Position numbers and translations under genes: made by a program. The notes beneath the pieces were generated by a model. It searched no databases and was not told where the DNA came from. It saw only the letters and a list, made by a program, of their open reading frames with translations. Positions 37,579-64,000 of a stretch of DNA of 64,000 nucleotides are shown piece by piece. The stretch is from Tricholomella constricta (lineage: Eukaryota; Basidiomycota; Agaricomycetes; Agaricales; Lyophyllaceae): positions 372,001 to 436,000 of the forward strand of contig JAACJP010000003.1 of the NCBI GenBank assembly GCA_013368375.1. Reading direction: 5' to 3'. The stretch's first letter is position 1. Each line of letters begins with the position of its first letter.

Positions 37579-37586
37579 CTCTGTCC

Positions 37587-39720: not shown

Positions 39721-39838
39721 TATGGATGTCGTCTACCTTAGAAATGCTTTTCGTACTATCCTCTTGTTCGTGATGATGTGCGGAGCCCTTGTAAAAAATA
39801 AACATCCTGGAGTGCCATGTGAGCTCAATTGATCTTAT

Positions 39839-40091
39839 TGAAAGGGCCAGCACATTGTGCACAGCGGAAAGGCTATTAGCTTACCTAGAGTGTTTAGCTT
39901 GTAGCTAAGGTTGAGGCTGTGAGTGATACTAGATACTAGGAATGTAATTCCACACCGATATACGACATATTGGTGTGCTATTTATACTACTGGGATGGTG
40001 CACAGACCATCGGAGATAGGGGATAAAATGTAGTGCACAGACCATTGATAAGAATCTCATGTGATGGGTCACATGAATATGGTAAGTTTCA
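39839..40091 (-). repeat. 3' LTR of the copia element
   Basis: 253 bp; differs from the other LTR by a handful of substitutions and a 2-bp indel (TC-ATGTG versus TATCATGTG region). Confidence 0.85.
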
Positions 40092-44656: not shown

Positions 44657-44658
44657 GC

Positions 44659-44670
44659 AGAATAGAGTAA
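44659..44670 (+). promoter_or_regulatory. Putative self-priming primer-binding site of gypsy-1
   Basis: AGAATAGAGTAA starts 3 nt after the LTR end. It is a perfect 12-nt complement of TTACTCTATTCT at 44529-44540 inside the LTR, where the transcript is expected to begin. No tRNA 3' end match was apparent. Confidence 0.6.
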
Positions 44671-44783
44671 CTCTAGAAACCCGACGAAGCCGACCGATCC
44701 GCTTCCGCGCCGAAACACGCGTCTGCTACACGCGACCGTCCAACGCGCGCTCGCCCCGATCGCCCGTCCAGTCCCGTTTCGAG

Positions 44784-49000: not shown

Positions 49001-50035
49001 ACTTGTTCGGCCCTGGGAGCTGCGAACCTCTACCGTCGCCACGTCTGGAAGCTGCACGGTCTCCCCGACGCATTCGTCTCCGATCGAGGTCCACAGTTCG
49101 TCGCCGAGTTCACGCGCGAACTGTACAGACTCCTGGGTATCAAGCTGTCGGCCTCGACGGCGTACCACCCACAGACCGACGGACAGACAGAGCGTGTCAA
49201 CCAGGAACTGGAACAGTTCTTGCGAGTCTTCTGCAATGAGCGCCAGAACGATTGGGAGGACCTCCTGCCCGACGCCGAATTCAGTTACAACAACCATGTA
49301 CATTCGGCGACGCAGCAGACCCCCTTCCTGCTTGACACTGGTCGGCATCCGCGCATGGGCTTTGAGCCGCGTCGGGGCGCTTCCAAGAACGAGTCAGCAG
49401 ACGAGTTCGTGGAGCGCATGAAGGAAGCACAGGAGGAAGCCAAGGCAGCGCTTTCAAAGGCCAAAGACGACATGGAGCGGTATTACAACCAGCGGCACGC
49501 CCCAACGCCCGACTACCAGCCTGGCGACAAGGTATACTTGGACGCGACCGACATTTCTACGACCCGACCGTCTAAGAAGTTGTCGCATCGCTACCTTGGC
49601 CCTTTCGTCGTGCAAAGGCGAGTCGGCCCGCTGGCATACCGCCTCCTGCTGCCTCAGTCCATGAAGCGCATCCACCCAGTCTTCCACGTCGTGAAGCTCA
49701 TCCCCGCCATTGCTGATCCGATCGAAGGTCGTCGATCCGATCCCCCTCCGCCCCCCGACATAATCAACGACGAACCCCATTACGAAGTTGAAAAGATCCT
49801 CGATAGCCGAACCTTCCGCAAAAAACTACAGTACAAGGTCCTGTGGAAGGGCTATGGTTACGAAGAAGCTTCTTGGGAACCTCGCGAAAATGTCGCCGCC
49901 CCTGATCTGGTACGAAAGTTCCACCGTGACAACCCCGACGCCCCACGCCACATTCGTGGCATCTTCACTCTATCCCCCGCCATCTTCGCCACCGTCACCC
50001 CGCACCGAGTCGTTGCGATTCAAAAGGGGGGGTGA
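46001..50035 (+). CDS. pol: Gypsy-1 Pol polyprotein with chromodomain
   Basis: Probably made as a Gag-Pol fusion by -1 frameshifting; no ATG is available near the start. Domains in order: aspartic protease (ALVDSGATGSFLN, about residue 105); reverse transcriptase with KKDGSLRLVQDYRTLN and the catalytic YLDDILIY (about 520); RNase H (IEADSSDFATGAVLS, NYEIHDKEMLAI); integrase with an HHCC zinc finger (HHDSKVAGHPGR, CDMCLRTK), and the DDE triad in VSVDFITEL, VSDRGPQF and TDGQTERVNQEL. A C-terminal chromodomain (HYEVEKILDSR, VLWKGYGYEEASWEP) completes it. All catalytic residues I could check are kept. The stop abuts the 3' LTR and overlaps the polypurine tract. Confidence 0.93.
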   Translation, partial: LITQRVERTPPLSSRNRFAPLSIEYANTPNIAAIPTSEPTDKDVQNPSDPTTPIAVAKPIAPPRRGLPRWEKQLPSRFIAAASPCPRSLWLNVELETTDTQESHAVTALVDSGATGSFLNVAFVEKHKLTTKVLSRPSPVYNVDGTLNEGGSVSCIVEAVLRYNGHTERAVFGVTQLGKQDMILGFNWLKNHNPEIDWETKEVKMSRCPTQCGTCKDEVKADRRTRTKVRAAICACRADGIPMTEPDLRAPTNPYVEDDSDEEEFLPYTPVLEEPDPESDDFLVETFLSGDRIFATAIHPTPTAEHSRASQTTSQRLAEAHAANSVPRTFRDAVPTHLHDFEDVFSKVAFDELPERKQWDHAIELEPGASPTGTKVYPLSPAEQVELDAFLKENLETGRIRPSKSPMASPVFFIKKKDGSLRLVQDYRTLNALTVKNRYPLPLISELVNNLRGARYFTKLDVRWGYNNVRIKEGDEWKAAFRTNRGLFEPLVMFFGLTNSPATFQTMMNDIFRDLIAEGVVCVYLDDILIYTKTLEEHHRVTRLVLDRLCEHQLFLKPEKCEFEQTKIEYLGLIISQGQAEMDPVKVAGVLEWPAPKNKKEVQAFLGFTNFYRRFIQDFSHHARPLFDLTGKDVAWRWGESEQSAFALLKSAITSGPVLMFPDDDRPYRIEADSSDFATGAVLSQESPSDGKWHPVAFYSKSLNAVERNYEIHDKEMLAIIRSLEEWRHFVEGAKHKVEIWTDHKNLEYFLTAKKLNRRQARWSLYLANFDFALHHRPGRSMGKPDALSRRPDHGDGSTDNANIVLLKPEFFAVRATEGLALVGEEDDVLKAIRKGNRDGAQEDAVAKAAQLVKASKIAGRSLRFGEWGEEGGLLTFRGRIYVPNVPDLRRRIVEQHHDSKVAGHPGRWKTLELVSRNYWWPQMSRFIGSYTSTCDMCLRTKPRRQLPVGQLQPLPIPEGRWNVVSVDFITELPESNGHDAIMNVVDSVGKRAHFIASHTTCSALGAANLYRRHVWKLHGLPDAFVSDRGPQFVAEFTRELYRLLGIKLSASTAYHPQTDGQTERVNQELEQFLRVFCNERQNDWEDLLPDAEFSYNNHVHSATQQTPFLLDTGRHPRMGFEPRRGASKNESADEFVERMKEAQEEAKAALSKAKDDMERYYNQRHAPTPDYQPGDKVYLDATDISTTRPSKKLSHRYLGPFVVQRRVGPLAYRLLLPQSMKRIHPVFHVVKLIPAIADPIEGRRSDPPPPPDIINDEPHYEVEKILDSRTFRKKLQYKVLWKGYGYEEASWEPRENVAAPDLVRKFHRDNPDAPRHIRGIFTLSPAIFATVTPHRVVAIQKGG
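50022..50035 (+). promoter_or_regulatory. Polypurine tract of gypsy-1
   Basis: AAAAGGGGGGGTGA directly before the 3' LTR; the usual plus-strand DNA primer. Its last three bases are the pol stop codon. Confidence 0.8.
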
Positions 50036-50532
50036 TGTTAGGGGAACACCTGTTTGGTGATCACGTGACCATCCGATTCCTCGGACGAGCACGTGACCGA
50101 CCGCTCCCCAGATGATCGCGATCCCGACCCCGACGCTCCGCCCCAAGCATCGGTGTACATACTTATAACTTCCTGTCGTTACTTCCCCTTCCAGCGCGCG
50201 CCCGATCCCGATTCCCGACATCCCGACGTCGGTCACCCGACCTCGTGCGCCTGCACCCTGAGCCACGAGGATCGGACAGCGTCGGGAACGTGTACATACA
50301 CGCGCCGCTGCCCATCCGTTATCATTTACGTACCATACACCCCAGAGAGCCGGCCCTCAAGTAGTTACTCGTATATAGTCATCCTCCTGACATGGGGGAA
50401 TCCTTTACTCTATTCTCATTGGATTCCCCTCTGCCAGGTAGGTCTACTTACGTTCTCTCTAATCGTACATAATATAACATTGGATTCCCCTCTGCCAGCA
50501 CGACTAAGCTCTGCGCTGAGGTCGCCCTAACA
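50036..50532 (+). repeat. 3' LTR of gypsy-1
   Basis: 497 bp, same sequence as 44160-44656 as far as I can compare by eye. Confidence 0.9.
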
Positions 50533-50620
50533 GTTTATCCTGCTTTTCTTTAACCGATTTGCCACCGCGCTTGCCTCGTTTGCCCTTCTTGTCTTTATTC
50601 TCGGTGTTACCACCAGAAGT

Positions 50621-51337
50621 TTAACCTTTCCAGGCAGGGTTCTTCCCTTTGTGTTTGACAGCTGACATCTTGTTAGCCATCTGGGAATTACCCGGGGCAG
50701 AGTTGCGCTGGTTAAACTCCGTCACGATAGCAGCCTTTATTGCGCTAAACGTGAGTTTGTCCTTCTCTGTGGTTTGGAGAAGGGTGGCAGATATGGTGTC
50801 CCATTTCTGGGGAATTGCGGACATGAGAATCATCGCTTTCACAAACTCAAGGAGATCAACCTGATTGGCCCTAAGGCGCTCCAACAAAAGGTTGAGCTTG
50901 CCTATCTCCGGTTCAGGGTTGGAAGACCCTGAGAGTCTGAACGATATGGCCTTCTGGAAATCTCCAAAGAGTAACGAAGCACCATGCTTCGAATACGCAT
51001 TCTCAAGAGCTTCCCAGAACTCCTCAGAGGTGTCACCACTGATCTGGTTTTTGATCTCTGGAGATACCCTGAGGCAAATAATGCCAAGGGCCTGGTCATC
51101 CTTGTTGTCCCATTCACGATGTTCCTTAGTTTCGGGGAGGTTTTTACCATCAGACCCGGTTTGTACTTTAGGACGTGGGTTGCCACCTTTGACAAGTTGC
51201 CAAAGGGCTTGGGAACGAAGGTAGTCCTGCACAGCAGAAGACCATTCAGCCCAGTTGGTGCCGTTGAAAACGGGGACGAGGGTAGCGAAGTTGGCGGACA
51301 TGTTTGATGCGGTTTGGAGTGCTGCAAGGAAGCGCAA
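50621..51337 (-). pseudogene. Copia gag, N-terminal part
   Basis: The retrotransposon gag (UBN2/Retrotran-gag type) fold is seen in LVPVFNGTNWAEWSSAVQDY, DDQALGIICLRVSPEIKNQI and EFWEALENAYS. The frame ends in TAA after KHKGKNPAWKG at 50621. The same frame stays open beyond that stop to the gypsy-1 insertion (Lys/Gly-rich, GGNTENKDKKGKRGKRGGKS), so the stop is probably a nonsense mutation. The zinc-knuckle part is not recognisable. Confidence 0.78.
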
Positions 51338-51526
51338 TCAGCATCATGTCCATCCAATAGAAGTGAGACATTGAGCAGATAGCTCATGCACATCGAGCAA
51401 CACAACATAGAGAATATCTAAGAATTTTCTCAGCCATAGGGCGAGAGCATTCAGAGATTTTACTCTAGTGGTAAGCCGGCAAGCCTGTCAAGTCTGCAGC
51501 CACAGAGGGCGCTGACGACGGCTATC

Positions 51527-51542
51527 GGGGCCCATAACCTAT
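51527..51542 (-). promoter_or_regulatory. Primer-binding site of the copia element (half-tRNA type)
   Basis: The plus strand reads GGGGCCCATAACCTAT directly before the 5' LTR. This resembles the anticodon stem-loop of initiator Met tRNA (GGGCTCATAACCCTGAT in yeast), the primer used as a half-molecule by copia and Ty5. Confidence 0.65.
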
Positions 51543-51797
51543 TGAAAGCGCCAGCACATTGTGCACAGCAGAAAGGCTATTAGCTTACCTAGAGTGTTTA
51601 GCTTGTAGCTAAGGTTGAGGCTGTGAGTGATACTAGATACTAGGAATGTAATTCCACACCGATATACGACATATTGGTGTGCTATTTATACTACTAGAAT
51701 GGTGCACAGACCATCGGAGATAGGGTATAAAATGTAGTGCACAGACCATTGATAAGAATCTATCATGTGATGGGTCACATGAATATGGTAAGTTTCA
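51543..51797 (-). repeat. 5' LTR of the copia element
   Basis: 255 bp, ends TGAAAC...CTTTCA on the minus strand. Confidence 0.85.
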
Positions 51798-52010
51798 ATA
51801 GGTCTGGAGTGATTTCAGTCTATCTCACTTACAAGGAATTCAGAGGGAGTTTGATTTGAATGATCATCGGAAAGCAGCTAGAATTACTGAAATTTACTGA
51901 CAAGAAAATTGAGATATCGGGGTGGGCACTGATGTTAAACAATTGCACATTGAAATCAACGCTCAAACTATCATCCCCGGTGAAACCTCTCCATGCTACT
52001 TCACAAACAC

Positions 52011-52308
52011 TACGAAACAGAATTACTCTCATATCAGAAGAAAGGGATGCAACAACGGACCTGAAAATAATATGCATTTGCAGCGACGCATGTGTAAGGA
52101 GGAGCACAGGCAGTCGGTCCCGCCCAGCTGATACTATAGAAGTAGATGATGGGTAAACCATTCATGATAGAGTAATGAGAGACTTACCTACCGCACTGGC
52201 CCCAGTGAGTTTGCTGCGCTCCGTTAGCAGTGGTCATGGTAGTCAGAGGTGTGGTGGTCAGTGTAGTGATTAGCGCACTGGTTGTTCCACCACCTCCGCC
52301 AGGGATGC
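52011..52308 (-). pseudogene. Acetylxylan esterase 2, 3' fragment (linker and CBM1)
   Basis: On the minus strand, a Gly/Thr linker (PGGGGTTSALITTLTTT) leads to a family 1 cellulose-binding module read across two introns: THWGQCGS, then SWAGPTACAPPYTC, then YYFQ|CL and a stop at 52011-52013. The second CBM glycine (GG in esterase 1) is Ser here. Exon layout, including the last tiny Cys-Leu exon, equals that of esterase 1. It is separated from its catalytic domain by gypsy-2, whose GATGC target duplication (52304-52308) interrupts the linker. Confidence 0.85.
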
Positions 52309-52529
52309 TGTAACGGGGTTACAAGATTGGGGACCTTGCTGTGCACGCTAGACGTAAGCTTGACAAGTCTGTCGATTGCTACGTATAGGTGTACAAGGTC
52401 TACTATTTAATTATGTAATGTAAAGGATTAAATAGGCAACACCGGAAGGTGTTGCCAAACAATAGCATAATCGTGTCGATAAGATACGATTAGATCAGAT
52501 TAGTCGATAAGATAGTAAGCGCCCTTACA
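52309..52529 (-). repeat. 3' LTR of gypsy-2
   Basis: 221 bp, starts TGTAAC and ends CTTACA on the plus strand. Contains a 9-bp-stem hairpin, GGCAACACC then GGTGTTGCC with a 4-nt loop, and a 6-bp one at its very edge (TGTAAC, loop GGG, GTTACA). Confidence 0.93.
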
Positions 52530-52904
52530 TACCCCCCTTTAAGATCGCTAGTAGCGATCTTCACCAGGGAGTAATGCAATAAGTAATAATAAATTAAGGC
52601 AAGAGGGAGGGTGTAGGTCCCGGCGACCTACACCCAATATCGCCTGCACAGAAATACGTATTACTGGTACGTATTCATGACCGAATACATAGTGGAGACA
52701 ATAGTTCCACTACACGGCCTCCAAGTGCCGCTCGAGGTGGCCTGGGATTGAGGACATCCGGTGTTGCGTATATTTGAGTACGCGACCTGCGGTTTGCTCC
52801 TCGGGAGTAAGGTGGTCTACACCTGACAATGGCGGTCGTCCCGACGATACCTCCTGCGTGTCGAGGTCGGTTCGTTGACGGGGGGATTAAGTTGTCTCCC
52901 CGAC
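52530..52904 (-). other. Non-coding 3' region of gypsy-2 with hairpins
   Basis: Between ORF3 and the 3' LTR. No ORF. Inverted repeats are as dense as in the coding part: AAGATCGCT/AGCGATCTT at about 52542-52562, GTAGGTC/GACCTAC at about 52613-52631, AATACGTA/TACGTATT at about 52653-52677 and TAGTGGA/TCCACTA at about 52689-52713. Confidence 0.75.
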
Positions 52905-55877
52905 CTATGACTCCATCACTGTGTCGGGGTCGGTGGGGTTGGATTCCACCGGACCCTGGCTAGTGGTAATCACTGCCAGTGATAGAGGCCCTGTGAGGGC
53001 CGACACGGGGTCCACTTGGGTTTCGGTAGCTCCTATTGGAGCTGCCACGACTGTGGAGGGTGTCGCGGGGGCAGGTGTGAGTGCCGCCGGGTCCGCCATT
53101 TCGACGTTGGTAGACGTCGATCCCGATGGAGCAGGAATGTGCAGGTCCGGAGGGGGAAACTCCCCTCTCCGAACACGGAGTTCTCGGAAATGTGGGTCTT
53201 CACCCACAAACATCCATTCCACGCTGGATAAACAATCCAGCCCCTCGTTCTGAAACTCCAAGCGCATTAACGTTTGAATGCGCGTGATGTCGTCGGTAGT
53301 GGGATGGTACCACCCGTCCCATTCCGGAATGGCGGGTGGCACGCCCAATTGATCGAGTCGACGAACGCGATCGTCGTCAACATTGTGGAACAGGTCCTTA
53401 TGAGGACCTGCAGTAGAGTAGTTATGGTCTAAATAGTGTAGACCATAAGTATAGCTGTGGTTTATCCAACTAATTGGAATACCACTGTTAATAAGGTGTT
53501 GTAGGACACCTTGTTCCGTCAACCGCCCTTCGGGAGCGGTAGGTTGGATCCGAGGGATAATAACCTCGGGTCCGGTAATCGGCGTGAACGGCCGATCAGG
53601 GTTGGCCTCGTTATGGGCCGCCACCGCTTCTGCATAGAAGTATGGCCGTGCGGTAATGGTTGCGAAAATTCGCATAAACCATGCCCGCATACTATGAGTT
53701 ACTGGCGACAATACGTTCGCCAGTAAGTAGCCCCAGGTCCCGCGACGATGAACGCGGAACCGGTAGTCCATTACGATACCTCCATATTGGTTCTTAGAAC
53801 CAATACGCCCATGGTGAATCATATGTCGACACCAATGTTCGACATCCAATGCATGAGCTGGGCCGGGTTGGGGGAGACCAGCTCCTCGTGTCGGCTTGTC
53901 ATGCCGATATTCGAATGCTTTACCCGGCCTTCTAATGACCGGGGCATTCCAGATGGGTGACCGTTCACTGAACGGTCGTGAGACGCTGCGGAATTCGTCC
54001 ATGGCTGCACGAGCCATGGCTCGGTCGCGCAAGTGAGGCGCAACCGATAGGGTGATCCGACGGAATTCTCTGAAGAGCATAAAGGCCTCGGCCCGCTCTT
54101 CATCCCTCACCCCATGGCGTCGGTTATTGATCAGCTCATAGAGCTGATCAACTTCACGGGGGTTCATTGGGAACCCTCGTGGTGCGACGGCATACAGCCG
54201 TCCATCTGAGGGACGGGAGTTTTGTCCCGTCCCTAGCTCGCTCTCTGAGACGCGAGCTGCTGTGCCTAGCGCAAAGGCACGATTCTGGGCGGACGACACA
54301 TATACCGTCCGCGACACCATATCCCAGAAGCGGTTGTCCCGCTCGTGGCGGCCGTTGATAAAGACCACCCCAAGCTCTTCAGGGATCCGTCCCGGCGCCT
54401 CCTTCTCAGCTTTGCGAGCCATATTCTCGCGATGCTGCTTTTGCCCGGCAGCCTTCTTCTTGCTGACGGGTTTCTCGTCGTCGGAGGACTCGCCGTAGTC
54501 CGACTCGTCCATAAATTCGGCGTACGGGTCAGACGCCTTTTGTTTGCCTTTGCCCTTTGGCGGAGGCGATGGGGGCTGCACCATCGTAGTGGGTGGTGCA
54601 GGCGATGGTGCCGGCAAGGTATACTTGCCAACAGGTTCCTTCTTTTGGGAACCTCTCTCTGGGTTCCGTACCCGGCTTTCTCCCGGGGTCGGTAGTGGGA
54701 GTAATGCTCCCGCTGTCTGTTGCTGTTGCGGTGCCTGCACCGCGGATGTCGACGATGTCGACGCCCTTCGTTCGACTTCTCGAGCCGGTAAGGGACGCAC
54801 TTCGCGCGTCCCTCGGTCCTCGCGACGCTCCTCTCGTTGAGGACCATAATCAAGTGGGCGCTCATCACGCCACACTTCTTGGTCGGGATGGCGGTCGAAC
54901 CGCCGATACTCTTGTTCCGGGCGTCGTTCCTGACGCCTGGGTTCATATAAGGTGCGTTCTTCTCGCCGCACCTCGGTCTGCTGTCTTTTCATGGGTCGGG
55001 ACGATGGTCCCTCCCCGCGATCTGGCGACGCCACTGCCGGTCGCTTTTTTGCCAGGCTGAGTTGCTCAGCCATGGCCGACTCTCTCGCCTTCACGCGTCT
55101 CAAGTCCGCGCGAACTCCATCGTACGCATCAAGCAGCTGGGTTACAACCAGCTGCGCCATTCCGTCGTCCAAGAAATCACAAAACTCGCGGTGAATACCC
55201 GCGTCTTCCAATCGGTCCAAGATAGACGAAAGGAGACCATCATCTGCGAATGGTCTCCTCGAACTTGACGCAGACGACGCTGCGCGATCGTCTGCCGGCC
55301 TCCGCGAACTCGACGCAAACGAACCTCTTTGTTCGTCTGCATATGGCGCGGCATATTGCCGCGCCGGTTCGCTGCGCGCCACTTGCGCCGGTGGAGTAGG
55401 TGTTTTTTGACGACTTTGGTCGTCCACCTCCATTTTCTCTGACTCGTTGTACCGCGTATTTTGCGGTACGATTGGGGCGGGCATTTGGGGGTACCACGTC
55501 GGTGGTGGGTACCCCATGAAGCTCTGCATTGATGGCATATGTTGATATGCCATCGACGGTGGGTAGAACCCACCCGTCTGTGGTTGTTGCCCCTGCTGGG
55601 GCGGTTGGCTCATGTGGCCAACCATAGGGTATAGTTGTTGCCCCTGATGGGGCGGTTGCCCCTGGTGGGGCAGTTGGCTCATGTGGCCAACCGATGGGTA
55701 TTGAAATGTTTGGGGCTGCACGCCCATATAGGTTGGGGGCGGGGGCGCGCTTTCCGCGCGTCCCTGCACCTCCTCCCCTTTTGGACTCGATCCCGAGGCC
55801 ATATTTTGATAGTCGGTGCGGCTGTCGCCGCCCCGAGTCGCGTCGTTGCTTGAGTTTGCTCCTGCGGTTGGGTACAT
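52905..55877 (-). CDS. Gypsy-2 extra ORF (ORF3), 990 codons, unknown function
   Basis: Lies 124 nt downstream of pol on the same strand, in another frame, where envelope genes sit in some elements; it shows no signal peptide or membrane helix and is not env-like. Residues 1-150 are Pro/Gln/Gly-rich with repeated GHMSQ-PPHQGQ-type units. Residues 200-280 form a helix with coiled-coil character (ILDRLEDAGIHREFCDFLDD, LLDAYDGVRADLRRVKARES). An Arg/Glu-rich part follows, then Pro/Lys-rich sequence with a possible nuclear signal (KPVSKKKAAGQKQ). Residues about 480-900 look globular, with ARRIPEELGVVFINGR-like start, HALDVEHWCRHMIHHGRIG, YRFRVHRRGTWGYLLANVL and NHSYTYGLHYLDHNY. I recognise no known domain. 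It is intact over 2973 nt, so it was kept under selection until recently. Confidence 0.8.
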   Translation of the reverse strand: MYPTAGANSSNDATRGGDSRTDYQNMASGSSPKGEEVQGRAESAPPPPTYMGVQPQTFQYPSVGHMSQLPHQGQPPHQGQQLYPMVGHMSQPPQQGQQPQTGGFYPPSMAYQHMPSMQSFMGYPPPTWYPQMPAPIVPQNTRYNESEKMEVDDQSRQKTPTPPAQVARSEPARQYAAPYADEQRGSFASSSRRPADDRAASSASSSRRPFADDGLLSSILDRLEDAGIHREFCDFLDDGMAQLVVTQLLDAYDGVRADLRRVKARESAMAEQLSLAKKRPAVASPDRGEGPSSRPMKRQQTEVRREERTLYEPRRQERRPEQEYRRFDRHPDQEVWRDERPLDYGPQREERREDRGTREVRPLPAREVERRASTSSTSAVQAPQQQQTAGALLPLPTPGESRVRNPERGSQKKEPVGKYTLPAPSPAPPTTMVQPPSPPPKGKGKQKASDPYAEFMDESDYGESSDDEKPVSKKKAAGQKQHRENMARKAEKEAPGRIPEELGVVFINGRHERDNRFWDMVSRTVYVSSAQNRAFALGTAARVSESELGTGQNSRPSDGRLYAVAPRGFPMNPREVDQLYELINNRRHGVRDEERAEAFMLFREFRRITLSVAPHLRDRAMARAAMDEFRSVSRPFSERSPIWNAPVIRRPGKAFEYRHDKPTRGAGLPQPGPAHALDVEHWCRHMIHHGRIGSKNQYGGIVMDYRFRVHRRGTWGYLLANVLSPVTHSMRAWFMRIFATITARPYFYAEAVAAHNEANPDRPFTPITGPEVIIPRIQPTAPEGRLTEQGVLQHLINSGIPISWINHSYTYGLHYLDHNYSTAGPHKDLFHNVDDDRVRRLDQLGVPPAIPEWDGWYHPTTDDITRIQTLMRLEFQNEGLDCLSSVEWMFVGEDPHFRELRVRRGEFPPPDLHIPAPSGSTSTNVEMADPAALTPAPATPSTVVAAPIGATETQVDPVSALTGPLSLAVITTSQGPVESNPTDPDTVMES

Positions 55878-56001
55878 GTTGTGGTTGTTGGTTGAAAATT
55901 TGGTTCACGTCCTAGCGCCAAAACATATTTAACCTTCTGTCATAACTTTTGATGGTTATGTAATTTTTCTGATCGCCGTGATCACATGACCGCGCCACAT
56001 T

Positions 56002-59000
56002 CTAGGTTTGTCGCGGCAACCTCGATGCGCTGCCCACCCCTTGCAATTCCAAGTAGCGGTCCAATGCCGCTAACTTGTTACAATTGTTGTGCGATTCCCA
56101 GGTGGTGTCACCTAGACTCCACCTAACTTGGTATTCCACTTTATTATTTTGGGTCCATCTATGGCCCAAAATCTCTTCGACAAACCATTCGTGATCGTCC
56201 GGCGCCCCAAAATCATAGGGCTCCGGGTGAGTTCTATTCGGGAACATTGCATCGTTTGTTGCGTAGTATGGGCGCAGCAGCGATATGTGAAATGTTGGAT
56301 GTATTCGACGCTCCATAAGCGCCGTAGGTAATTCCAGCGTATAGTTCGACGTGTCTGGCATGGCCTTCAATACTTTGTAGGGCCCGACGAATTTCGGACA
56401 TAATTTCCGGGCGCGTCCCTTGGGGAGGTTCAAGTTCTTGGTAGATAAATATACCAAGTCACCCCCCTTTATTTCCGGACCAGTGGATCGACGCCTGTTT
56501 GCCTCGCGCGTTTGAAATACGCGCGTTTCGATTATAGCGTCATGCGCCTCCGCTATGTTCTGCAATGCGCGTTCAGCGTATTCCCGAATTCCCTTTGGTA
56601 TTACGCTGTCTGAGCGTATCTCTTTCAACATGGATGGCATGTATCCACCATTCAACTCAAATGGAGCGAACTTGGTGGTAGCCGATACGCTCGCATTTAT
56701 CGCAAACTCGGCCATGGGTATACGATCTACCCAATCCTTTTGGTCATGCCGTACAACGGCGCGAAATATCTGGCCAATACTACGATTGGCGCGCTCCGTC
56801 TGTCCATCCGTCTGAGGGTGGAAAGATGTCGACATTAGAAGCTTAGCTCCTAATAATTTATGTAGTTCGCGCCACCAGCGCGAGGTAAACTTAGAGTCTC
56901 GGTCGCTTACGATCGAGCTTGGAAGGCCATGTAACCTGACGATTTCCCGTAGGTATACCCATGATAATTGGGCTGCCGTCATCGTCGTATGTATGGGTAT
57001 CATATGCACCATACTCGTCATACGACAAATTACTACCCATAGGTAGTTATATCCCTTTGATTCTGGAAATGGACCGATAAAGTCCATTCCGATAGAATCC
57101 CAAGGCTTAGTGGGTACTGGCAGGGAATGTAGTTTCCCTAACGGTTTCTGATTTGACGTCTTGATCTGTTGGCAATACTCGCACGTTTTACAAAACGTAC
57201 GAACAGTCGTGGCTAGTGATGGCCACCAATACCATCGTCGAATATATTCAGTAGTCCGTTCGGCACCGAAATGGCCCATAGTTTTATGGGCTTGCTCAAC
57301 AATTGACGTGATGATCTCGGGTTCTCGCGGTATGCATAGAACGCTATCATTTATAGCGTTCGTGGTCCAAATCAGATTGTCTTTCGTAGTGAACGTACGA
57401 AAGTCCGTTGGGTTAGTGAGAATCACTGAAAAAAGTTTGTCCTTTGGGTATCCCAGGATAACGTCGTTACGAATCTTTTCGTCCGTTTTGTCTGGGGGAG
57501 GGGCAACTGTGTCCCTTCCGAGGACCATATCTCCAACCGTACGTTCCTGTTCGGTTGGCCTCTGGCTTTTTTGAAGGTGTGACGATGGTCCGGATGCGAT
57601 ACTTGGTGCCGCAGCCTCCATTATCTGGGCTTCTACATCTCGATCCTCCTGGCGTTCTTGAAGACGCTTGCTTCGACGTATTTCTACGTCCTTCATCGCT
57701 CGAATTTCAACTACTTTTTCCACGATTTCATGGTATCGTGGTACTGGTAAATCTTCACCAGTAGGATCGATTCTAGCATCGGCAGCTACGAAGTCGTGGA
57801 CGTCGTAACGATCGTGATGGTTATCGCTCTCGAAATATCGCGATAGGCAGTCGGCGACTTTATTCAGTTCGCCTTTCACATAGGTAATGTCGAAGTTAAA
57901 TCGCGACCTGTATTCCATCCATCGACGCTGCCTAGGTGATAAATTCACCTGGGTCTTAAAGAATTCGAGGGCTTTGTGGTCGGTAATGATGTGGATTTTA
58001 TAGCCCACAAGTTTATCCTCCCACTTAAGTAATGCTTCGAGGATAGCTAAGGTTTCGAGTTCATGCACGGCGTAATTCTGCTGTGCATTCGTGAATTTTT
58101 TGGACATGAATCCAGCCGGCTGAGCTTGGATCCACGTAGGTCCTTGACCATACATCGCGCCGACGCCTGACTTGGAGGCGTCACATATAATCCAAATTGG
58201 TTCGTCTGTCTTCGGTTGAATAGGCCGAATAATTGGCGTCGTGCAACATATATGCTTTATCATTTCAAAGCATCGTTGATGAATTGGTCTCCAATAGAAT
58301 GGCGACCCATTCTCGGTCATCGCCATTAGTGGCCCAGTGTACGCGGATATATCTGGGAGGAATTGACCCAGATAATTAACCAGTCCAACGAATCGCTGTA
58401 TATCGTTGTAATTCCGTGGAACCCTCCAATCGCGAATCCGTGCCAATTTATCGGCGTCAGGGTGAATTCCTTGGTCGTCGATTATATGACCAAGGCAATC
58501 GACGCGATCCGAATATAGTTCGCATTTCTTCCACTTCAAATAAAGGGACTGTTCGCGTAATCGTTCGAACACTACTCGAAGATGATCTTCATGTTCTTCG
58601 ATGGAGTTCGAAAATATGAATATGTCGTCCAAGTACACATGCATAAATTTCCCAATGACGTCCCGAAAAATTGACGTCATTAATCGTTGAAATGTTGCGG
58701 GGGCGTTACAGTCCCCGATCTGCATTATGTTGCTAACGTACGTTCCCGCTATCGTTGCAAAGGCGGTCTTGTGTACGTCCTTCTCGAGGATGCGTACTTG
58801 TTCGTACGCATCCGTTAAGTCAATTTTGGACCGTATTTTTCCCCTAGCGACATCTTCGCGAATAACTTCCTGGTCTGGCAAGGGCGTAACGTCCTTGATC
58901 GTGTTATCGTTACGCTGGCGTGCGTCCAAGGGTGTTCTCAGGGAGCCGTCTTTTTTCGGGATACATAGCAGCGGCGCTGCTTGCTTCACCGAACGAGGCT

Positions 59001-59901
59001 CCCACCATTTAGAATCCGTATACCGATTGACCTTCGCGTAGAATTCCTCGCGAAGGGACATTGGGCACCTCGGCGCGTGGTACTGGTACTGTTTCTCATC
59101 GTCGACGAGAGTAATCTCGTGATTGACTTCCCGCCAGGGTGGTAGCTGTTGTTTCGTACCACCCACCATATCTTCGAATTCGTCATGCCATTGCTGTCGA
59201 AGTCGTGGATAATCTTCCGCGGTAAGGCCTCCATTGGGTGCCTTACCTTTTCCGTTCACCGTTCTTGCAGCGCGAATGTGCGCTGTGTCTTTATTGCTGG
59301 GTTTAACATCAAACCTAGCTCGTAGTTTTACGAGAGCAAAGTCACTCTCATCCTTCACTGGTAACCGATACAACGGCCGTTTAGCCCGTTGTATATTCAC
59401 CGGAAAATTCATTTCCGTTGGCTCCGATACTTCCTCAGGCCGTGGATTTCGGTACGCTTGTCCTCGCGTGCCTACATTTCTTCCTTCGTGAGCCCGCATT
59501 GACGCTATTACTGCGTTCCATTCTTGCGGCATCCGTGGGTCGAACATCCACTCATATTGTGGATGTGGGTTTGGTCTATCCCAAAATGATCGATTACTCG
59601 CATTCGTATACGGCTCTGATTCCGTATCCTTATCGGCCCCGCTCGTCTTACGCGCTTCATTATCGCGCTGGCGTTCTTCGCATGGCTCGTGAGTCCGTGC
59701 TCGTTCGTTCGAAGGCTCGTGTTGTGCCTTCTGCTGTTGTCGTTGGGGTTTTCTCTTCTTCGGAGGTGGCTTATCCCCCTCCTTAAGAGTTTCTTGAAAC
59801 TCTTCATCGGATAATAGAAGTGCTGGGTGATCCTTTGGTAGGCTGTTTATCGGCCTACCCTCGTTATCAGGATCATCATCATCTTCTACTGTGACTTTTA
59901 G
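56002..59901 (-). CDS. pol: Gypsy-2 Pol (RT, RNase H, integrase, chromo-like domain)
   Basis: The frame is open from the codon after the TGA (CTA, 59899-59901) to the stop at 56002, 1299 residues; the first Met is at 59547, so it is probably made by read-through from gag-pro. After a charged spacer come RT (CIPKKDGSLRTPLDARQRN, catalytic YLDDIFIF), RNase H (WIICDASKSGVGAMYGQG, YAVHELETLAILEAL, ITDHKALEFF), and integrase with zinc finger (HKTMGHFGAERT, CKTCEYCQQIK) and DDE blocks (IGMDFIGPFPES, VSDRDSKFTS, TDGQTERANRSIGQ). The C-terminus carries a divergent chromodomain (EWFVEEILGHRW, EYQVRWSLGDTTWESH). Catalytic residues are kept. Confidence 0.9.
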   Translation of the reverse strand, partial: LKVTVEDDDDPDNEGRPINSLPKDHPALLLSDEEFQETLKEGDKPPPKKRKPQRQQQKAQHEPSNERARTHEPCEERQRDNEARKTSGADKDTESEPYTNASNRSFWDRPNPHPQYEWMFDPRMPQEWNAVIASMRAHEGRNVGTRGQAYRNPRPEEVSEPTEMNFPVNIQRAKRPLYRLPVKDESDFALVKLRARFDVKPSNKDTAHIRAARTVNGKGKAPNGGLTAEDYPRLRQQWHDEFEDMVGGTKQQLPPWREVNHEITLVDDEKQYQYHAPRCPMSLREEFYAKVNRYTDSKWWEPRSVKQAAPLLCIPKKDGSLRTPLDARQRNDNTIKDVTPLPDQEVIREDVARGKIRSKIDLTDAYEQVRILEKDVHKTAFATIAGTYVSNIMQIGDCNAPATFQRLMTSIFRDVIGKFMHVYLDDIFIFSNSIEEHEDHLRVVFERLREQSLYLKWKKCELYSDRVDCLGHIIDDQGIHPDADKLARIRDWRVPRNYNDIQRFVGLVNYLGQFLPDISAYTGPLMAMTENGSPFYWRPIHQRCFEMIKHICCTTPIIRPIQPKTDEPIWIICDASKSGVGAMYGQGPTWIQAQPAGFMSKKFTNAQQNYAVHELETLAILEALLKWEDKLVGYKIHIITDHKALEFFKTQVNLSPRQRRWMEYRSRFNFDITYVKGELNKVADCLSRYFESDNHHDRYDVHDFVAADARIDPTGEDLPVPRYHEIVEKVVEIRAMKDVEIRRSKRLQERQEDRDVEAQIMEAAAPSIASGPSSHLQKSQRPTEQERTVGDMVLGRDTVAPPPDKTDEKIRNDVILGYPKDKLFSVILTNPTDFRTFTTKDNLIWTTNAINDSVLCIPREPEIITSIVEQAHKTMGHFGAERTTEYIRRWYWWPSLATTVRTFCKTCEYCQQIKTSNQKPLGKLHSLPVPTKPWDSIGMDFIGPFPESKGYNYLWVVICRMTSMVHMIPIHTTMTAAQLSWVYLREIVRLHGLPSSIVSDRDSKFTSRWWRELHKLLGAKLLMSTSFHPQTDGQTERANRSIGQIFRAVVRHDQKDWVDRIPMAEFAINASVSATTKFAPFELNGGYMPSMLKEIRSDSVIPKGIREYAERALQNIAEAHDAIIETRVFQTREANRRRSTGPEIKGGDLVYLSTKNLNLPKGRARKLCPKFVGPYKVLKAMPDTSNYTLELPTALMERRIHPTFHISLLRPYYATNDAMFPNRTHPEPYDFGAPDDHEWFVEEILGHRWTQNNKVEYQVRWSLGDTTWESHNNCNKLAALDRYLELQGVGSASRLPRQT

Positions 59902-60276
59902 TCATTCTCTTCGTTTCTCCAATGACCGATGGCGTCTAACTCGGCCATCGGTATCATCCATTTTTACTTTAGTCGCTGGTGTAGCGACTCCATTGACGAC
60001 AACTTCGTCACGGTTAAAGTCCAGCACGACGTTGTTTGCGCGCATAAACGGCGTGCCTATAATCACGTCGTATCGATCAAAGTTAGCAAGGTCCATGTAA
60101 ACCTTGCCTTTAAACCCTGGAAGAACGGCTTCCACCGTCGTGCCAAAATTTACTGTGGCCCGACTTCCTTTAGTTCCGAGCTGGAGGATTAATGGATCCT
60201 CCAACGGAAACACTCGAATATCGGCCACTTGAGCGAATGACGGCGTAAGTCCGGTAGTCGTACTCCCGGAATCCTA
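59902..60276 (-). CDS. pro: Gypsy-2 protease, between two in-frame stops
   Basis: In the gag frame, directly after TAG (60274-60276), the codons give DSGSTTTG, the aspartic-protease active site, so the stop sits one codon before the catalytic Asp. The flap and second strand follow (LQLGTKGSRATVNFG, YDVIIGTPFMRANNV). The 123-codon stretch ends at TGA (59902-59904) followed by CTA, after which the pol frame continues in the same phase. It can be made only if the TAG is read through or if the true codon was sense. Confidence 0.8.
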
Positions 60277-62988
60277 GAGGGTCCAAGCCTCATGTCCACC
60301 TACATTCATGTAGGTGACCAGGCACTCCTTGTCCTTTATCGGTACTACGGGACGAGCAATCTTGTCCCTACCCGTCCGCACTTTCACTTTACGACTTGGT
60401 GGTTTATCATTGCGTTCTTCTGACGCAATGACTTCTGTCATTGCAAACATACGCTCGGTCTCATCGTCCCGAGCATAGTATTCATTTTCGTAGACCTCCA
60501 TATCTACGAACTCATCGCCTTCGTCTTCATTGTCCGCCTCGGTCTCAGGGCGTCCATTGTCTCGCCCGTCCGGGTCCTCGGGAGAAGTATCTTCGTCGTC
60601 CGCCTCACTTGCTGCGTCAGGTGCCGCTGTACGTGCGGCCCGTAGGAACGCTCGCTGTTTCTTGGGCTGTTTGCAATCTTTTGCAAAATGCCCTAGTTTC
60701 CCACAATTAAAGCACACTTCCCCCGGGGGGTGGTTGTGATGACCGTGGTTTTTGGTTTGATCGTAATGCGGACGATCTCCCGTCTTCATCGCTGGTTTCT
60801 CGACGTGGAGCTTTTGCTCTCCACGTCCCGGTTGATCCTGATACGCTAGCTTGGCGTATGGTTTTTCATTAAGTGCGCCAGACACACGTCGAGTCCTGTT
60901 GAAATTGTTTTGTGGGGTGTTCACTCGCCCCCCATCTGGTTTCCGCGGTTGACTCGGTTGATTTCGCTGAGCGGTTATGTTCCGCTCAAAGTAATCAGCC
61001 GTCTTCTGGGTGGCTTGGTGTGCTAAGCCCACCGCTAGGAACTCTTGGACCGTGTTGATTTCGGGTGATAGCCCGTCATCGAATAATGCCTTCCGCATCT
61101 CACGCGGAAGTGTCTTGAGGAATTTCTCCAGGAACGTCCAATCGTCCGTTCTTGCTGCCATATTCATGGCATGGTCCACAAGGTCATCATATAAACCTTG
61201 TATTCCTTTGCTCGCCGAGTAAGTAACGGCATTAAAGTCGTTACGAGCATCTTGCATGGTTGAGGGTAGCACGAACCGGTCATACAATCCAAGTACGACG
61301 TCTTCAAACGTCCAGAACTGCTTCTCGCGGTTTACATGTATAACGTGGCGATTGTACCACTTTCGAGCTTCGCCATCGAGAAACTCGGATGTTATCAGAA
61401 CGCGCTCTTGGTCGCGTTCTTCTCCTCCAAACTGGCTTACTGCCAGCATCACGACGAGGCTCGACAGCCATTCTTCAAGGTCGCCGAACTTTGCACTTCC
61501 ACTATAAGTGCCTACGGACTTTGAGTCCGCACGCCGAGATTTCATCCCGTCCGGAAGCGACAGTCGTACCGACAAACGCTCGTGCATTAATTGATGCAAT
61601 CGCTCATGCATCTTAGTTTTATGCTGCTCTCCGGCAGCATGTATTCCGTCCGCAATTGATTGACTCCGGCGGATCGGAGCAGGCATTGAATAGCCTCGAG
61701 TCTGAGCTCGAGGCTGCGCATATTCCGCGGGTTCACTTATTCGAACCCGCATGTCTCGACGACCGTTAGCTATCGCCGTCGACTTATTCTTTTCGACGGC
61801 TTCCAATCCAGTTACTAACCCACCATCCGACCCTTGAGTTTGCGAGGCCCATTGCCTCGCCATCTCATCCACAGGCATATGTCCTTCAAAGACGACTCCT
61901 TGGTCGTCATAATTCGTGAACTTGCTCCGTGATAGATCAGCATTTCTCAGACGCTGGTAAGCGATCCGGTTGTTCCACTCTTTCGCTAATGGAACACGGC
62001 CATCCTTAGCCTCCGGAGGTACTTGAATAGCTGGCACGCTTTCAGTGCCAGCTAGTTGCGAATTCGTGTCCTTACGCTCAGTGGGTGGGTCTAATGTAGA
62101 CTCACTAACAGGGGCCCATCGGGAACCTTGTGGTTGCGCAAGGTGCTCTTCGCGAGTCATTCTTTCGCGTTTCGCTGCCGCGGCCCGACGACGATAATCG
62201 TCGTCAGATTCTCCTAACTGGCGCGCTTGGTGCAGCGCAGATACTGCCATAGCAGCCTCATCAAGAGGCTGGTTCGATCCCGAGGCCACTGCTTGCGGGG
62301 TGAAAAGGTCATCCCAACGACCTTTTCCTTTGTTGAGCGGAGCTTTCTTAGGTATAGGAGTCCCAGCGATCGAGCTGACTGCTGAATTCGAAGTTCCCTT
62401 AGGGTACTTCTTCCTGTATTCCGTAACTACTACGGACAGCGCTTCCAAGTATCGGTCGGCATACTCCTGTACGACCATTTCTGCAACGGACTGTGCTCCG
62501 GTTGATCGTAGAACGAGCCTATCCGCTCGTTCCTCTAGTCGTCTTCGTCGATGTTCGCTAACAACATCAGTGGTATCCCAGAATTGCTTCACTTTTAGCG
62601 CCAGCAATTCCCTATCGCTGGCTTCTTCTTCATTGGCCTCGGGGTCGGACAAGTCGTCTTCGTCCGACTCCATCTTGACTATGCTCAGGGTGGACGCCCC
62701 GAACGCTCTACTTGACAGACGGCTGTCTGGCCATCTGCTTCCTGCCGTGGGGCCAGGTCGATATGACCTGGCCAATTCGTCGGCCAAGCTCCCCGGCACA
62801 TTGGTGCTTGCTATCGGCCAAGGTTCCTCCGATTCTAATCCTAGTGTATTCTGCGCTGGTGGACTTTGTCCACCAGCGACTGATCCGACTTCCACTGGTT
62901 GCAGTGGAAGTTGTGATGGAGGATGCGCTGCGAGCGCATCCTCGAGGACCGGAGTTCGGCTCTTTCCGGATGTGGGAGTTGGTGTCAT
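60274..62988 (-). CDS. gag: Gypsy-2 Gag
   Basis: 904 codons, long for a gypsy Gag. Start at 62988 (MTPTPTSGKSRTPVLEDALA). A disordered, charged first half (ESDEDDLSDPEANEEEASDR) precedes the capsid-like region with FGDLEEWLSSLVVMLAVSQF and YSASKGIQGLYDDLVDHAMN. One zinc knuckle, CFNCGKLGHFAKDC, lies at about residues 752-770, followed by an acidic C-terminus. The frame stops at TAG (60274-60276), one codon before the protease DSG. Confidence 0.9.
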   Translation of the reverse strand: MTPTPTSGKSRTPVLEDALAAHPPSQLPLQPVEVGSVAGGQSPPAQNTLGLESEEPWPIASTNVPGSLADELARSYRPGPTAGSRWPDSRLSSRAFGASTLSIVKMESDEDDLSDPEANEEEASDRELLALKVKQFWDTTDVVSEHRRRRLEERADRLVLRSTGAQSVAEMVVQEYADRYLEALSVVVTEYRKKYPKGTSNSAVSSIAGTPIPKKAPLNKGKGRWDDLFTPQAVASGSNQPLDEAAMAVSALHQARQLGESDDDYRRRAAAAKRERMTREEHLAQPQGSRWAPVSESTLDPPTERKDTNSQLAGTESVPAIQVPPEAKDGRVPLAKEWNNRIAYQRLRNADLSRSKFTNYDDQGVVFEGHMPVDEMARQWASQTQGSDGGLVTGLEAVEKNKSTAIANGRRDMRVRISEPAEYAQPRAQTRGYSMPAPIRRSQSIADGIHAAGEQHKTKMHERLHQLMHERLSVRLSLPDGMKSRRADSKSVGTYSGSAKFGDLEEWLSSLVVMLAVSQFGGEERDQERVLITSEFLDGEARKWYNRHVIHVNREKQFWTFEDVVLGLYDRFVLPSTMQDARNDFNAVTYSASKGIQGLYDDLVDHAMNMAARTDDWTFLEKFLKTLPREMRKALFDDGLSPEINTVQEFLAVGLAHQATQKTADYFERNITAQRNQPSQPRKPDGGRVNTPQNNFNRTRRVSGALNEKPYAKLAYQDQPGRGEQKLHVEKPAMKTGDRPHYDQTKNHGHHNHPPGEVCFNCGKLGHFAKDCKQPKKQRAFLRAARTAAPDAASEADDEDTSPEDPDGRDNGRPETEADNEDEGDEFVDMEVYENEYYARDDETERMFAMTEVIASEERNDKPPSRKVKVRTGRDKIARPVVPIKDKECLVTYMNVGGHEAWTL

Positions 62989-63095
62989 CGGGTCTGGGTC
63001 TCGTGGGTTCTTTTGATGATGGTTGTTCTAAATGGAATGTGATTCTGCGTATGTCGTGGGTACGCAGCAATAGAAAGCAAGGTAGCTTAAAAAAA

Positions 63096-63316
63096 TGTAA
63101 CGGGGTTACAAGATTGGGGACCTTGCTGTGCACGCTAGACGTAAGCTTGACAAGTCTGTCGATTGCTACGTATAGGTGTACAAGGTCTACTATTTAATTA
63201 TGTAATGTAAAGGATTAAATAGGCAACACCGGAAGGTGTTGCCAAACAATAGCATAATCGTGTCGATAAGATACGATTAGATCAGATTAGTCGATAAGAT
63301 AGTAAGCGCCCTTACA
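63096..63316 (-). repeat. 5' LTR of gypsy-2
   Basis: 221 bp, identical to 52309-52529. Minus-strand transcription starts within it. Confidence 0.93.
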
Positions 63317-63321
63317 GATGC

Positions 63322-64000
63322 TGAACCATGCAAGGACATTGTTAGCCTGGACAGGAATATTGTGATCAACGTTATTGGCGATAATGGCTTGGAAGTTGGG
63401 TCCATAGCTGGAGCGCGTCCAACCAGAGAGAGGAGAGTTTTGTTGAGTCAAGGTAGGGGAAGTGCTGTACCCAAAGATGTTGGTCCATTGCTTAATGCCT
63501 TCGGCAAAGTTCTTGTAGTTGAGAGTCATATCGCTGGATGGTGATGATGATGATGACGATAAGAGACTATTCGTTGCTGTACAACGAGAACATATTTACA
63601 GGGTTCCTTGCCAAATCTGCATTTTAGGGTGAGCACCAGCATATCCAGGGTATCCGCTTCGAACAAGATCGCCCTATGGATAACTTTTAGGTGAAATAAA
63701 ATGGGCAAGTTTGCCGACTCACCCATTCCTGTGGAGATTTAACTATGGTTCCTGCAGCGCAGGCATTATTCCAAAGGTTGGGGCCAGCGAAGCAGCCATA
63801 AGGAACTCCAGCAAAGGCAGCACCAGCCTTGAAGAGGTCCAGATATATTCCAGCAAGGACATTAGTCATCATGGCTCCAGACGAGGTTCCAGTCATAAAG
63901 ACACGGCTGGGGTCGACCCTGTAGTTGGAAATTGCGTAGCGAACCATTGACGCAATACCCAAAGAGTCACCCCCAGCATTGTGCTTGAGAGCGGCATTGG
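63322..64000 (-). pseudogene. Acetylxylan esterase 2, 5' part (CE1 domain), continues past the window
   Basis: Minus-strand exons encode the CE1 core: [20 protein letters not shown], the nucleophile elbow [53 protein letters not shown] and TLNYKNFAEGIKQWTNIFGY. Two introns fall at the same places as in esterase 1. The exon breaks off at VLAWFS, where gypsy-2 inserted. The rest (linker and CBM1) is at 52011-52308 with the frame otherwise kept. The signal peptide lies beyond position 64000. No other lesion was seen, so the gene was functional until the insertion. Confidence 0.87.

What the first reader, a model, noticed from the sequence alone, without database searches (positions are those of the whole stretch)
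52309..63316. A retrotransposon built almost entirely of short perfect hairpins
Seen directly: gypsy-2 carries perfect inverted repeats at very high density through LTRs, gag, protease, pol, ORF3 and non-coding DNA. Base-checked examples with stem length/loop: 62854-62878 (11/3), 54127-54151 (11/3), 62921-62941 (9/3), 62889-62910 (9/4), 62751-62773 (9/5), 62302-62327 (9/8), 62028-62054 (10/7), 60802-60827 (9/8), 60407-60431 (9/7), 59368-59394 (9/9), 58788-58813 (10/6), 57339-57361 (9/5), 55531-55554 (10/4), 55345-55365 (9/3), 55231-55259 (10/9), 54209-54234 (10/6), 53699-53726 (10/8), 53422-53448 (10/7), plus a 9/4 hairpin in each LTR. Many more of 6-8 bp lie between them. With equal base use, about 0.4 perfect stems of 9 bp with loops of 3-11 nt are expected by chance in 11 kb. 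I did not see this pattern in gypsy-1, copia or host genes. The protein domains are conserved, so synonymous sites and loosely constrained residues seem to have been fitted to the stems. Possible causes (inference): selected RNA structure over the whole genome, as in some RNA viruses, for RNAi evasion or packaging; repeated Gag or ORF3 binding sites; or a template-switch mutation process that copies short stretches in reverse.
Basis: partly seen in the sequence, partly recalled or inferred. Interest (0 to 1): 0.95.

Follow-up and report, generated by a model that had tools for sequence, protein, structure and literature searches.

The report
Retrotransposon filled with selected short hairpins
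A jumping gene of a mushroom carries short, perfectly self-pairing stretches all along its 11,000 bases, denser than in several well-known folded RNA viruses of bacteria, and comparison of its relatives suggests that natural selection keeps the pairing while individual hairpins come and go.

Summary
Of 28 perfect stems of 9 bp or more (loop 3-11) in the window, 26 lie in this LTR retrotransposon. Gag, pol and ORF3 hold 9, 4 and 8, against 0.1-0.2 in synonymous-codon shuffles; gypsy-1 pol has none. The host is Tricholomella constricta. Four subfamilies share the density (7-11 stems of 7 bp or more per kb); two related families have 5.1 and 2.5-2.9, six ssRNA phages 1.2-3.3.

With stems chosen in a third sequence, arms diverge at 0.5-0.7 of background at third codon positions; loops do not slow. 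Compensatory changes are about four times expectation. Single-copy mutations affect hairpins randomly; fixed subfamily differences avoid breaking them and favour making them. This fits selection, or an equivalent bias, on pairing.

Most stems are not conserved between families: density persists, positions turn over. G-U pairs are tolerated no better than A-C mismatches, hinting that both strands matter. A dsRNA-avoiding, RNAi-evading role is my best, unproven guess; mismatch correction during reverse transcription and plain sense-RNA structure are the main rivals.

The parts
52309..63316 (-). LTR retrotransposon ('gypsy-2', subfamily A), 11,008 bp, 5-bp target-site duplication GATGC
   Evidence: identical 221-nt direct repeats; TG...CA ends and GATGC on both flanks; 26 of 28 stems >=9 bp of the window
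63096..63316 (-). 5' LTR (221 bp)
   Evidence: hairpin 63222-63243
52309..52529 (-). 3' LTR (221 bp), identical to the 5' LTR
   Evidence: hairpin 52435-52456
60274..62988 (-). gag ORF (904 aa), CCHC zinc knuckle; the frame is interrupted by a stop at codon 905 in this copy, open further in many other copies
   Evidence: Pfam zf-CCHC
56002..59901 (-). pol frame (about 1,299 aa): RT, RNase H, integrase with H2C2 and SH3-like domain
   Evidence: Pfam on 56002-59547; open frame
52905..55877 (-). ORF3 (990 aa), no Pfam match; three database homologues, all from Lyophyllum
52435..52456 (.). hairpin 9/4 (LTR)
52541..52561 (.). hairpin 9/3
52609..52635 (.). hairpin 11/5
53422..53448 (.). hairpin 10/7
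53699..53726 (.). hairpin 10/8
53785..53805 (.). hairpin 9/3
54127..54151 (.). hairpin 11/3
54209..54234 (.). hairpin 10/6; outer pair changed on both sides and still paired in subfamilies B and C
55231..55259 (.). hairpin 10/9
55345..55365 (.). hairpin 9/3
55531..55554 (.). hairpin 10/4
57339..57361 (.). hairpin 9/5; one clean compensatory pair in copy L019
58654..58681 (.). hairpin 9/10
58788..58813 (.). hairpin 10/6
59368..59394 (.). hairpin 9/9
59925..59952 (.). hairpin 9/10
60407..60431 (.). hairpin 9/7
60802..60827 (.). hairpin 9/8
61692..61715 (.). hairpin 9/6
62028..62054 (.). hairpin 10/7
62302..62327 (.). hairpin 9/8
62751..62773 (.). hairpin 9/5
62854..62878 (.). hairpin 11/3
62888..62911 (.). 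hairpin 10/4
62919..62943 (.). hairpin 11/3
63222..63243 (.). hairpin 9/4 (LTR)

Best explanation
A clade of Ty3/gypsy-type elements in the mushroom Tricholomella constricta is under weak but element-wide selection (or an equivalent bias that acts only in its active lineages) for short, isolated Watson-Crick hairpins (5-12 bp, loops about 3-12 nt) at whatever sites the proteins allow. Shown: the excess, its spread in the clade, slower change and covariation of arms, and fixed differences that favour pairing while single-copy mutations do not. Inferred: what the hairpins are for. Density persists while most positions turn over, loops show no constraint, and every kind of mismatch (G-U, A-C, transversion) is about equally disfavoured. 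So I think the selected property is global self-structure of both complementary strands, which keeps the element's RNA from annealing to complementary RNA. That would avoid long dsRNA and RNAi in a host that has RdRP- and Argonaute-type genes.
For: Excess over synonymous shuffles in gag, pol and ORF3 of A, strongly in family E, moderately in F, not in gypsy-1 pol. Density 8.5 stems of 7 bp or more per kb vs 1.2-3.3 in six ssRNA phages. Stems chosen in A, divergence measured between C and D at third codon positions: arms 0.152, loops 0.311, background 0.269; non-coding arms also low (small numbers). Polarised single breaks, stems of 7 bp or more: G-U 33 vs 71.7 expected, A-C 32 vs 60.8, transversions 33 vs 57.8; compensatory pairs 8 vs 1.8. 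232 singletons in 16 copies: gain 11 vs 10.2, loss 46 vs 50.2; 476 A-B fixed differences: gain 37 vs 21.4, loss 42 vs 98.4. Isolated fixed changes alone (109): gain 13 vs 5.1, loss 9 vs 23.0. Fitted 2Ns per bp 0.49 (0.33-0.65), 17.8 log units over neutral. RdRP and Piwi domain matches in the genome; Dicer was not searched.
Against: Selection and a biased correction process are formally alike. The steep drop with mismatches (9-bp frames with 0, 1, 2, 3 mismatches enriched about 140, 6.4, 1.9, 1.0-fold) and type-blind depletion would also suit correction. The static slope per bp (0.88) exceeds the fitted dynamic value (0.49). Summed two-strand RNA (-834.6) fits hardly better than sense RNA (-835.1); only the 'larger of both strands' form does (-832.8). 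Mismatch types vary by pair of subfamilies without explanation: at A stems, C has 13 G-U and 36 A-C; at D stems, B has 25 and 12. Family F is closer in pol (71-74%) than E (58%) yet has weaker hairpins. No expression, antisense or small-RNA data exist here. Singletons are mostly C>T/G>A (160 of 232), probably host-side mutations, so they test errors of reverse transcription poorly; the 72 others also look random (gain 5 vs 3.2, loss 12 vs 14.5).
Confidence: 0.4

Rival explanations
1. Mutational origin: during reverse transcription the enzyme switches template within quasi-palindromes and copies one arm from the other, making and repairing perfect hairpins without any function (similar to what is proposed for coding palindromes of Nematomorpha mitochondria).
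For: Linked to one pol clade; mismatch types equally depleted; strong preference for perfect stems; compensatory pairs in excess; density without positional conservation between families; template switching is a published proposal for hairpin origin (PMC8794818, significance read; PMC6649704, discussion read).
Against: Of 475 differing loops 469 are closer to the direct than the inverted form and none is a clear inversion; stems with two or more derived changes in one arm 3 of 286 vs about 22 in random segments (partly due to slower arms). Unbiased correction that removes some 40% of breaks should leave roughly 30 compensatory pairs (my own rough arithmetic, allowing for protein constraint); 11 were seen. 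Stems with one mismatch are in 6.4-fold excess, whereas the Nematomorpha paper reports no excess of imperfect repeats. Non-coding arms are also conserved (small numbers).
Confidence: 0.22
2. Selection on the sense genomic RNA alone: compaction, packaging into particles, protection from nucleases or slowed translation, i.e. ordinary genome-scale ordered RNA structure.
For: RNA folding energy of the sense strand far below synonymous shuffles; precedent in RNA viruses (GORS); G-U enriched at outer stem ends in subfamily A (22 G-U vs 11 A-C, p 0.004); fits nearly as well as the summed two-strand RNA model.
Against: Mean cost of a G-U change in sense RNA is 1.45 kcal/mol vs 4.5 for A-C, yet both are depleted alike (33/71.7 vs 32/60.8); sense-RNA model 4.1 log units below a type-blind one, predicting 87 G-U against 58 seen. 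Outer-end G-U bias absent in B, C and D. Internal single mismatches: G-T 7 vs 10.8 expected, A-C 19 vs 14.7.
Confidence: 0.25
3. Selection on DNA hairpins: single-stranded cDNA during reverse transcription, or cruciforms in the integrated copy.
For: DNA nearest-neighbour costs summed over both strands are nearly equal for G-T, A-C and transversions (5.73, 5.76, 5.79), matching the type-blind depletion; DNA sense-strand and both-strand models lie 1.4 and 2.3 log units below the type-blind one.
Against: The one obligate long single-stranded DNA (recalled), the minus strand, fits worst of the DNA models (6 log units below type-blind). 7-11 bp arms are short for cruciform extrusion (recalled).
Confidence: 0.1
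4. Chance or base composition.
For: None found.
Against: Synonymous shuffles (60) and local shuffles (5 and 60); same-genome gypsy-1 without excess.
Confidence: 0.01

Closest known systems
[quoted passage not shown]
   Same: Pervasive structure through coding sequence, detected as folding energy below shuffles (definition recalled); PMC3950689 (abstract read) reports that structured transcripts evade cellular RNA sensing.
   Different: Here it is an LTR retrotransposon of a fungus; structure is isolated perfect Watson-Crick hairpins, type-blind to mismatches. GORS viruses themselves were not measured here.
ssRNA phages (MS2, Qbeta, GA, SP, AP205, PP7)
   Same: Excess of local perfect hairpins. 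That they fold both strands to prevent annealing is recalled.
   Different: 1.2-3.3 stems of 7 bp or more per kb, enrichment 1.7-5.2, vs 8.5 and about 20 here (five of the six phage stretches lack a short 3' end).
Coding palindromes of Nematomorpha mitochondria (PMC6649704; abstract opening, passages and discussion read)
   Same: Perfect inverted repeats embedded in functional coding genes, gained and lost over time.
   Different: [quoted passage not shown] here 5-12 bp, one-mismatch stems in excess, arms slower than background.
Ty1/Ty3 genomic RNA structure (PMC11381356; abstract and one results section read)
   Same: LTR-retrotransposon RNA with folded regions.
   Different: Stable regions are reported for up to 30% of Ty1/Ty3 RNA in a mosaic; no element-wide hairpin excess is described in what I read.

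Membership tests
Ty3/gypsy LTR retrotransposon | LTRs with TG..CA, short target-site duplication | tested here: met
Ty3/gypsy LTR retrotransposon | RT and RNase H followed by integrase in pol; gag with zinc knuckle | tested here: met
Genome-scale ordered RNA structure | Folding energy below codon-preserving shuffles along the whole sequence | tested here: met
   gag, pol and ORF3 z -8.7 to -16.6 on sense and antisense; LTRs and non-coding parts not tested by energy
Genome-scale ordered RNA structure | Structure of the single-stranded RNA, with G-U wobble acceptable | tested here: inconclusive
   G-U depleted as much as A-C, sense-RNA model 4.1 log units below type-blind but not excluded
Genome-scale ordered RNA structure | RNA folds in cells and affects host sensing | not testable with these tools
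   needs probing and expression data
Template-switch / converted palindromes | Multi-nucleotide changes in one arm | tested here: not met
   3 of 286 stems vs about 22 in random segments
Template-switch / converted palindromes | Spacer inversions | tested here: not met
   0 clear of 475 differing loops
Template-switch / converted palindromes | Arms evolve in concert | tested here: inconclusive
   compensatory pairs 11 vs 2.7 expected, but 162 one-sided breaks remain
Dispersed packaging signals | Conserved loop motif | tested here: not met
   loops diverge faster than background in 9 of 11 comparisons; no motif search was made

The most novel reading that the evidence does not exclude
A retrotransposon lineage has evolved 'two-strand' self-structure: every part of the element is fitted with perfect hairpins so that neither its RNA nor a complementary RNA can readily pair with the other, denying the fungal RNAi system its dsRNA trigger. 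The trait is carried by the clade as a density, not as fixed sites.
Probability: 0.3. Interest if true: 0.93.

Novelty: new variant of a known kind. Interest (0 to 1): 0.85.

Why it matters
Pervasive selected structure is known from some RNA viruses. I saw no report of it for an LTR retrotransposon in the listings (open-access library only; for the longer result lists only the top rows were seen). The element offers a natural series (A-D, E, F, gypsy-1) in one genome with hairpin density from about 8 per kb down to chance. So the question whether pervasive structure evades RNA silencing, or whether reverse transcription itself makes hairpins, becomes directly testable by small-RNA and insertion sequencing. 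It also shows protein-coding sequence carrying a second, dispersed constraint.

Tried and rejected
DNA of relatives in other species: two viral-contig scans gave none; metagenome contigs has cap 0 and was not tried; genome contigs was not tried (prokaryotes). ORF3 fold: mean pLDDT 38.6, unusable, no fold search made. Rfam, 52000-63600: no match. Long-range pairing: no clear excess above loop 20. Bulged or extended helices: chance level. Arm conservation ascertained in one of the two compared sequences was set aside as biased (part of 31) and replaced by third-sequence and polarised tests. A first coding map that treated the gag-pol junction as non-coding was corrected. Rows dropped: 4 of 20 A copies (L013, L014, L018, L019; 91-96% identity over the stretch); piece p5, which D lacks, in tests needing A-D together; double changes. 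B loci L026 and L027 were used only for density, L022 only.
Full report
WHAT IS THERE. Window 52309-63316 is an LTR retrotransposon on the minus strand: identical 221-bp LTRs, TG..CA ends and a 5-bp duplication GATGC, gag with a zinc knuckle, pol with RT, RNase H and integrase, and a third ORF of 990 aa without Pfam match. Eight of nine gag relatives found (79-99% identity) are named Tricholomella constricta, and the contig length given with P0124 (1,019,865) equals that of contig C11 of the window's assembly, so that is the host (Agaricales, Lyophyllaceae). ORF3 found three database proteins, all from Lyophyllum. The genome holds dozens of copies: at least 40 places by pol DNA, 46 by ORF3, about 50 by gag; these are lower bounds.

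THE OBSERVATION. Searches confirm it as set out under the observation check. The excess is present in LTR, leader, gag, junction, pol, ORF3 and 3' non-coding DNA (6-11 stems of 7 bp or more per kb). The rest of the window has 0-7 such stems per 4 kb. Arms are richer in G+C (58%) and loops richer in A and T.

FAMILY MEMBERS. Four subfamilies were read: A (window), B (L025, L029), C (L024, L030), D (L028), 77-95% identical in DNA by piece. All have 7-11 stems of 7 bp or more per kb. Of 51 A stems of 8 bp or more, 28 are intact in B and 14 in C; 16 and 24 have one broken pair. Two further families of the same pol clade were found in the genome: E (L037, pol 57.6% identical) with 5.1 per kb and F (L038, L039; 71-74%) with 2.5-2.9 per kb. 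Against 40 synonymous shuffles, stems of 7 bp or more: E pol 19 vs 1.9 (shuffle maximum 5), E gag part 13 vs 1.5 (6), E ORF3 11 vs 2.4 (7), F pol 6 vs 1.9 (7, so within range at this length; at 6 bp 16 vs 8.0, maximum 14), F2 pol 7 vs 1.5 (4), gypsy-1 pol 5 vs 3.3 (6). The trait therefore belongs to a clade and varies in strength, not simply with relatedness. Between A and E individual stems are mostly not conserved: 0.40 of pairs are Watson-Crick against 0.38 expected from site identity, and 1 of 21 stems has at most one break. A stems in F: 0.49 vs 0.44, 3 of 23. F stems in A, 0.65 vs 0.43, 3 of 6, are a small exception. Density persists and positions turn over.

SELECTION OR MUTATION. (i) With stems found in A, C and D differ at third codon positions by 0.152 in arms, 0.311 in loops and 0.269 elsewhere. 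The three other comparisons with an ascertaining sequence from the opposite pair agree: 0.144 vs 0.275 (stems from B, C-D), 0.115 vs 0.210 (from C, A-B), 0.128 vs 0.191 (from D, A-B). First and second positions hardly differed between arms and background in C-D but did in A-B. (ii) Polarised changes (target against three agreeing relatives), stems of 6 bp or more: one-sided breaks 162 vs 277.8 expected, compensatory pairs 11 vs 2.7. (iii) A test in the manner of McDonald and Kreitman: singletons in 16 A copies gain or lose hairpin score as random substitutions of the same type do (11 vs 10.2; 46 vs 50.2); fixed A-B differences lose far less (42 vs 98.4) and gain more (37 vs 21.4) (gain/loss contrast p = 0.001). 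Variants shared by two or more copies lie between (gain 14 vs 7.2, loss 28 vs 36.5). Isolated single fixed changes show the same, so gains do not need multi-base events. (iv) No clear spacer inversions and few one-arm bursts. Against a clean win for selection: the effect may act at reverse transcription, which post-insertion singletons test poorly; mismatch types are equally depleted; enrichment falls very steeply with the first mismatch; and the fitted strength (0.49 per bp) is below the static slope (0.88). A correction bias and weak selection are mathematically close; I give selection about 0.75.

WHICH MOLECULE. In sense RNA a change to G-U costs 1.45 kcal/mol and one to A-C 4.5, so sense-RNA selection should spare G-U. 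It does not: G-U 33/71.7, A-C 32/60.8, transversions 33/57.8 (stems of 7 bp or more). In a point-process fit (162 changes among 17,136 possible) log-likelihoods were: type-blind -830.9, DNA sense strand -832.3, RNA larger of both strands -832.8, DNA both -833.2, RNA both summed -834.6, RNA sense -835.1, DNA minus -837.2, RNA antisense -846.8; neutral -886.3. Antisense-only RNA is strongly disfavoured. Sense-only RNA is mildly disfavoured and hardly worse than summed two-strand RNA, so the data hint at, but do not prove, a two-strand or DNA demand. A G-U excess at outer stem ends in A is not seen in B, C or D. The 12 directed comparisons total 252 G-U and 277 A-C but vary widely (13 and 36 for A stems in C; 25 and 12 for D stems in B), which I cannot explain. 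Counts of 8-bp stems with one G-U (35, shuffles 3.5) and one A-C (33, shuffles 4.2) are similar.

HOW IT MAY WORK. Selection of a density rather than of sites, absence of constraint on loops, and disfavour of every mismatch type together suggest that each strand is to stay folded on itself. Recalled knowledge: ssRNA phages need this because their plus and minus strands must not anneal. For a multicopy element inserted in both orientations in a host with RdRP and Piwi domain genes (Dicer not searched), antisense RNA and RdRP products are the likely partners, and evading dsRNA the likely gain. This last step is inference without expression data.

COMPARISON. Density is 2.6 to 7 times that of six ssRNA phages. 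PMC3950689 (abstract) reports that structured viral RNAs escape cellular sensing. PMC6649704 (passages and discussion) describes coding palindromes for which conversion is proposed. PMC8794818 (significance statement) and PMC8604942 (abstract) describe template switching as a source of hairpins or arm changes. PMC11381356 (abstract, one section) describes mosaic structure in Ty1 and Ty3. The listings of searches showed nothing equivalent for LTR elements; only the open-access library was searched, and for the longer result lists only the top rows were seen.

LIMITS. Four subfamilies and three further sequences from one genome; alignments by MAFFT; background rates from non-stem sites, which may hold shorter stems; lineage tests share stems and are not fully independent; B is represented by two pieces of one element plus partial copies; D bears a stop in pol and is truncated, so part of its changes may be decay.

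Noticed in passing
60274-62988: The gag-protease frame of the window copy stops at codon 905 just before the protease region, while many other copies have a frame of about 1,041 codons: this copy looks defective in gag-protease although its LTRs are identical.
   Followed up: partly
L037 (G000:C20:74000-83000), L038, L039: Two related element families with their own third open frames (776 and 359 aa). F's ORF3 is weakly similar to that of gypsy-2 (29% over 237 aa), E's gave no match; hairpin density falls in the order A, E, F.
   Followed up: partly
L001-L020, pol region: 160 of 232 single-copy variants are C>T or G>A, and some copies bear TGA stops: perhaps cytosine deamination or a RIP-like process on inserted copies.
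   Followed up: no
55579-55701: Short imperfect direct repeats (54-nt unit, 3 copies) inside ORF3, in a Gln/Pro-rich stretch.
   Followed up: no
36000-40000: One of two non-element tiles with 7 stems of 7 bp or more (the other is 48000-52000), and the one with most stems of 6 bp or more (19), one of 9 bp at 38987-39009.
   Followed up: no
P0002 (Lyophyllum shimeji): An annotated 'tannase and feruloyl esterase' of 1,318 aa whose N-terminal part is an ORF3 homologue of this element: probably a chimeric gene model or an element inserted beside a gene.
   Followed up: no
44160-50335: Gypsy-1 (chromodomain type) has identical 300-nt terminal repeats, so it is also recent, yet shows no hairpin excess.
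   Followed up: partly
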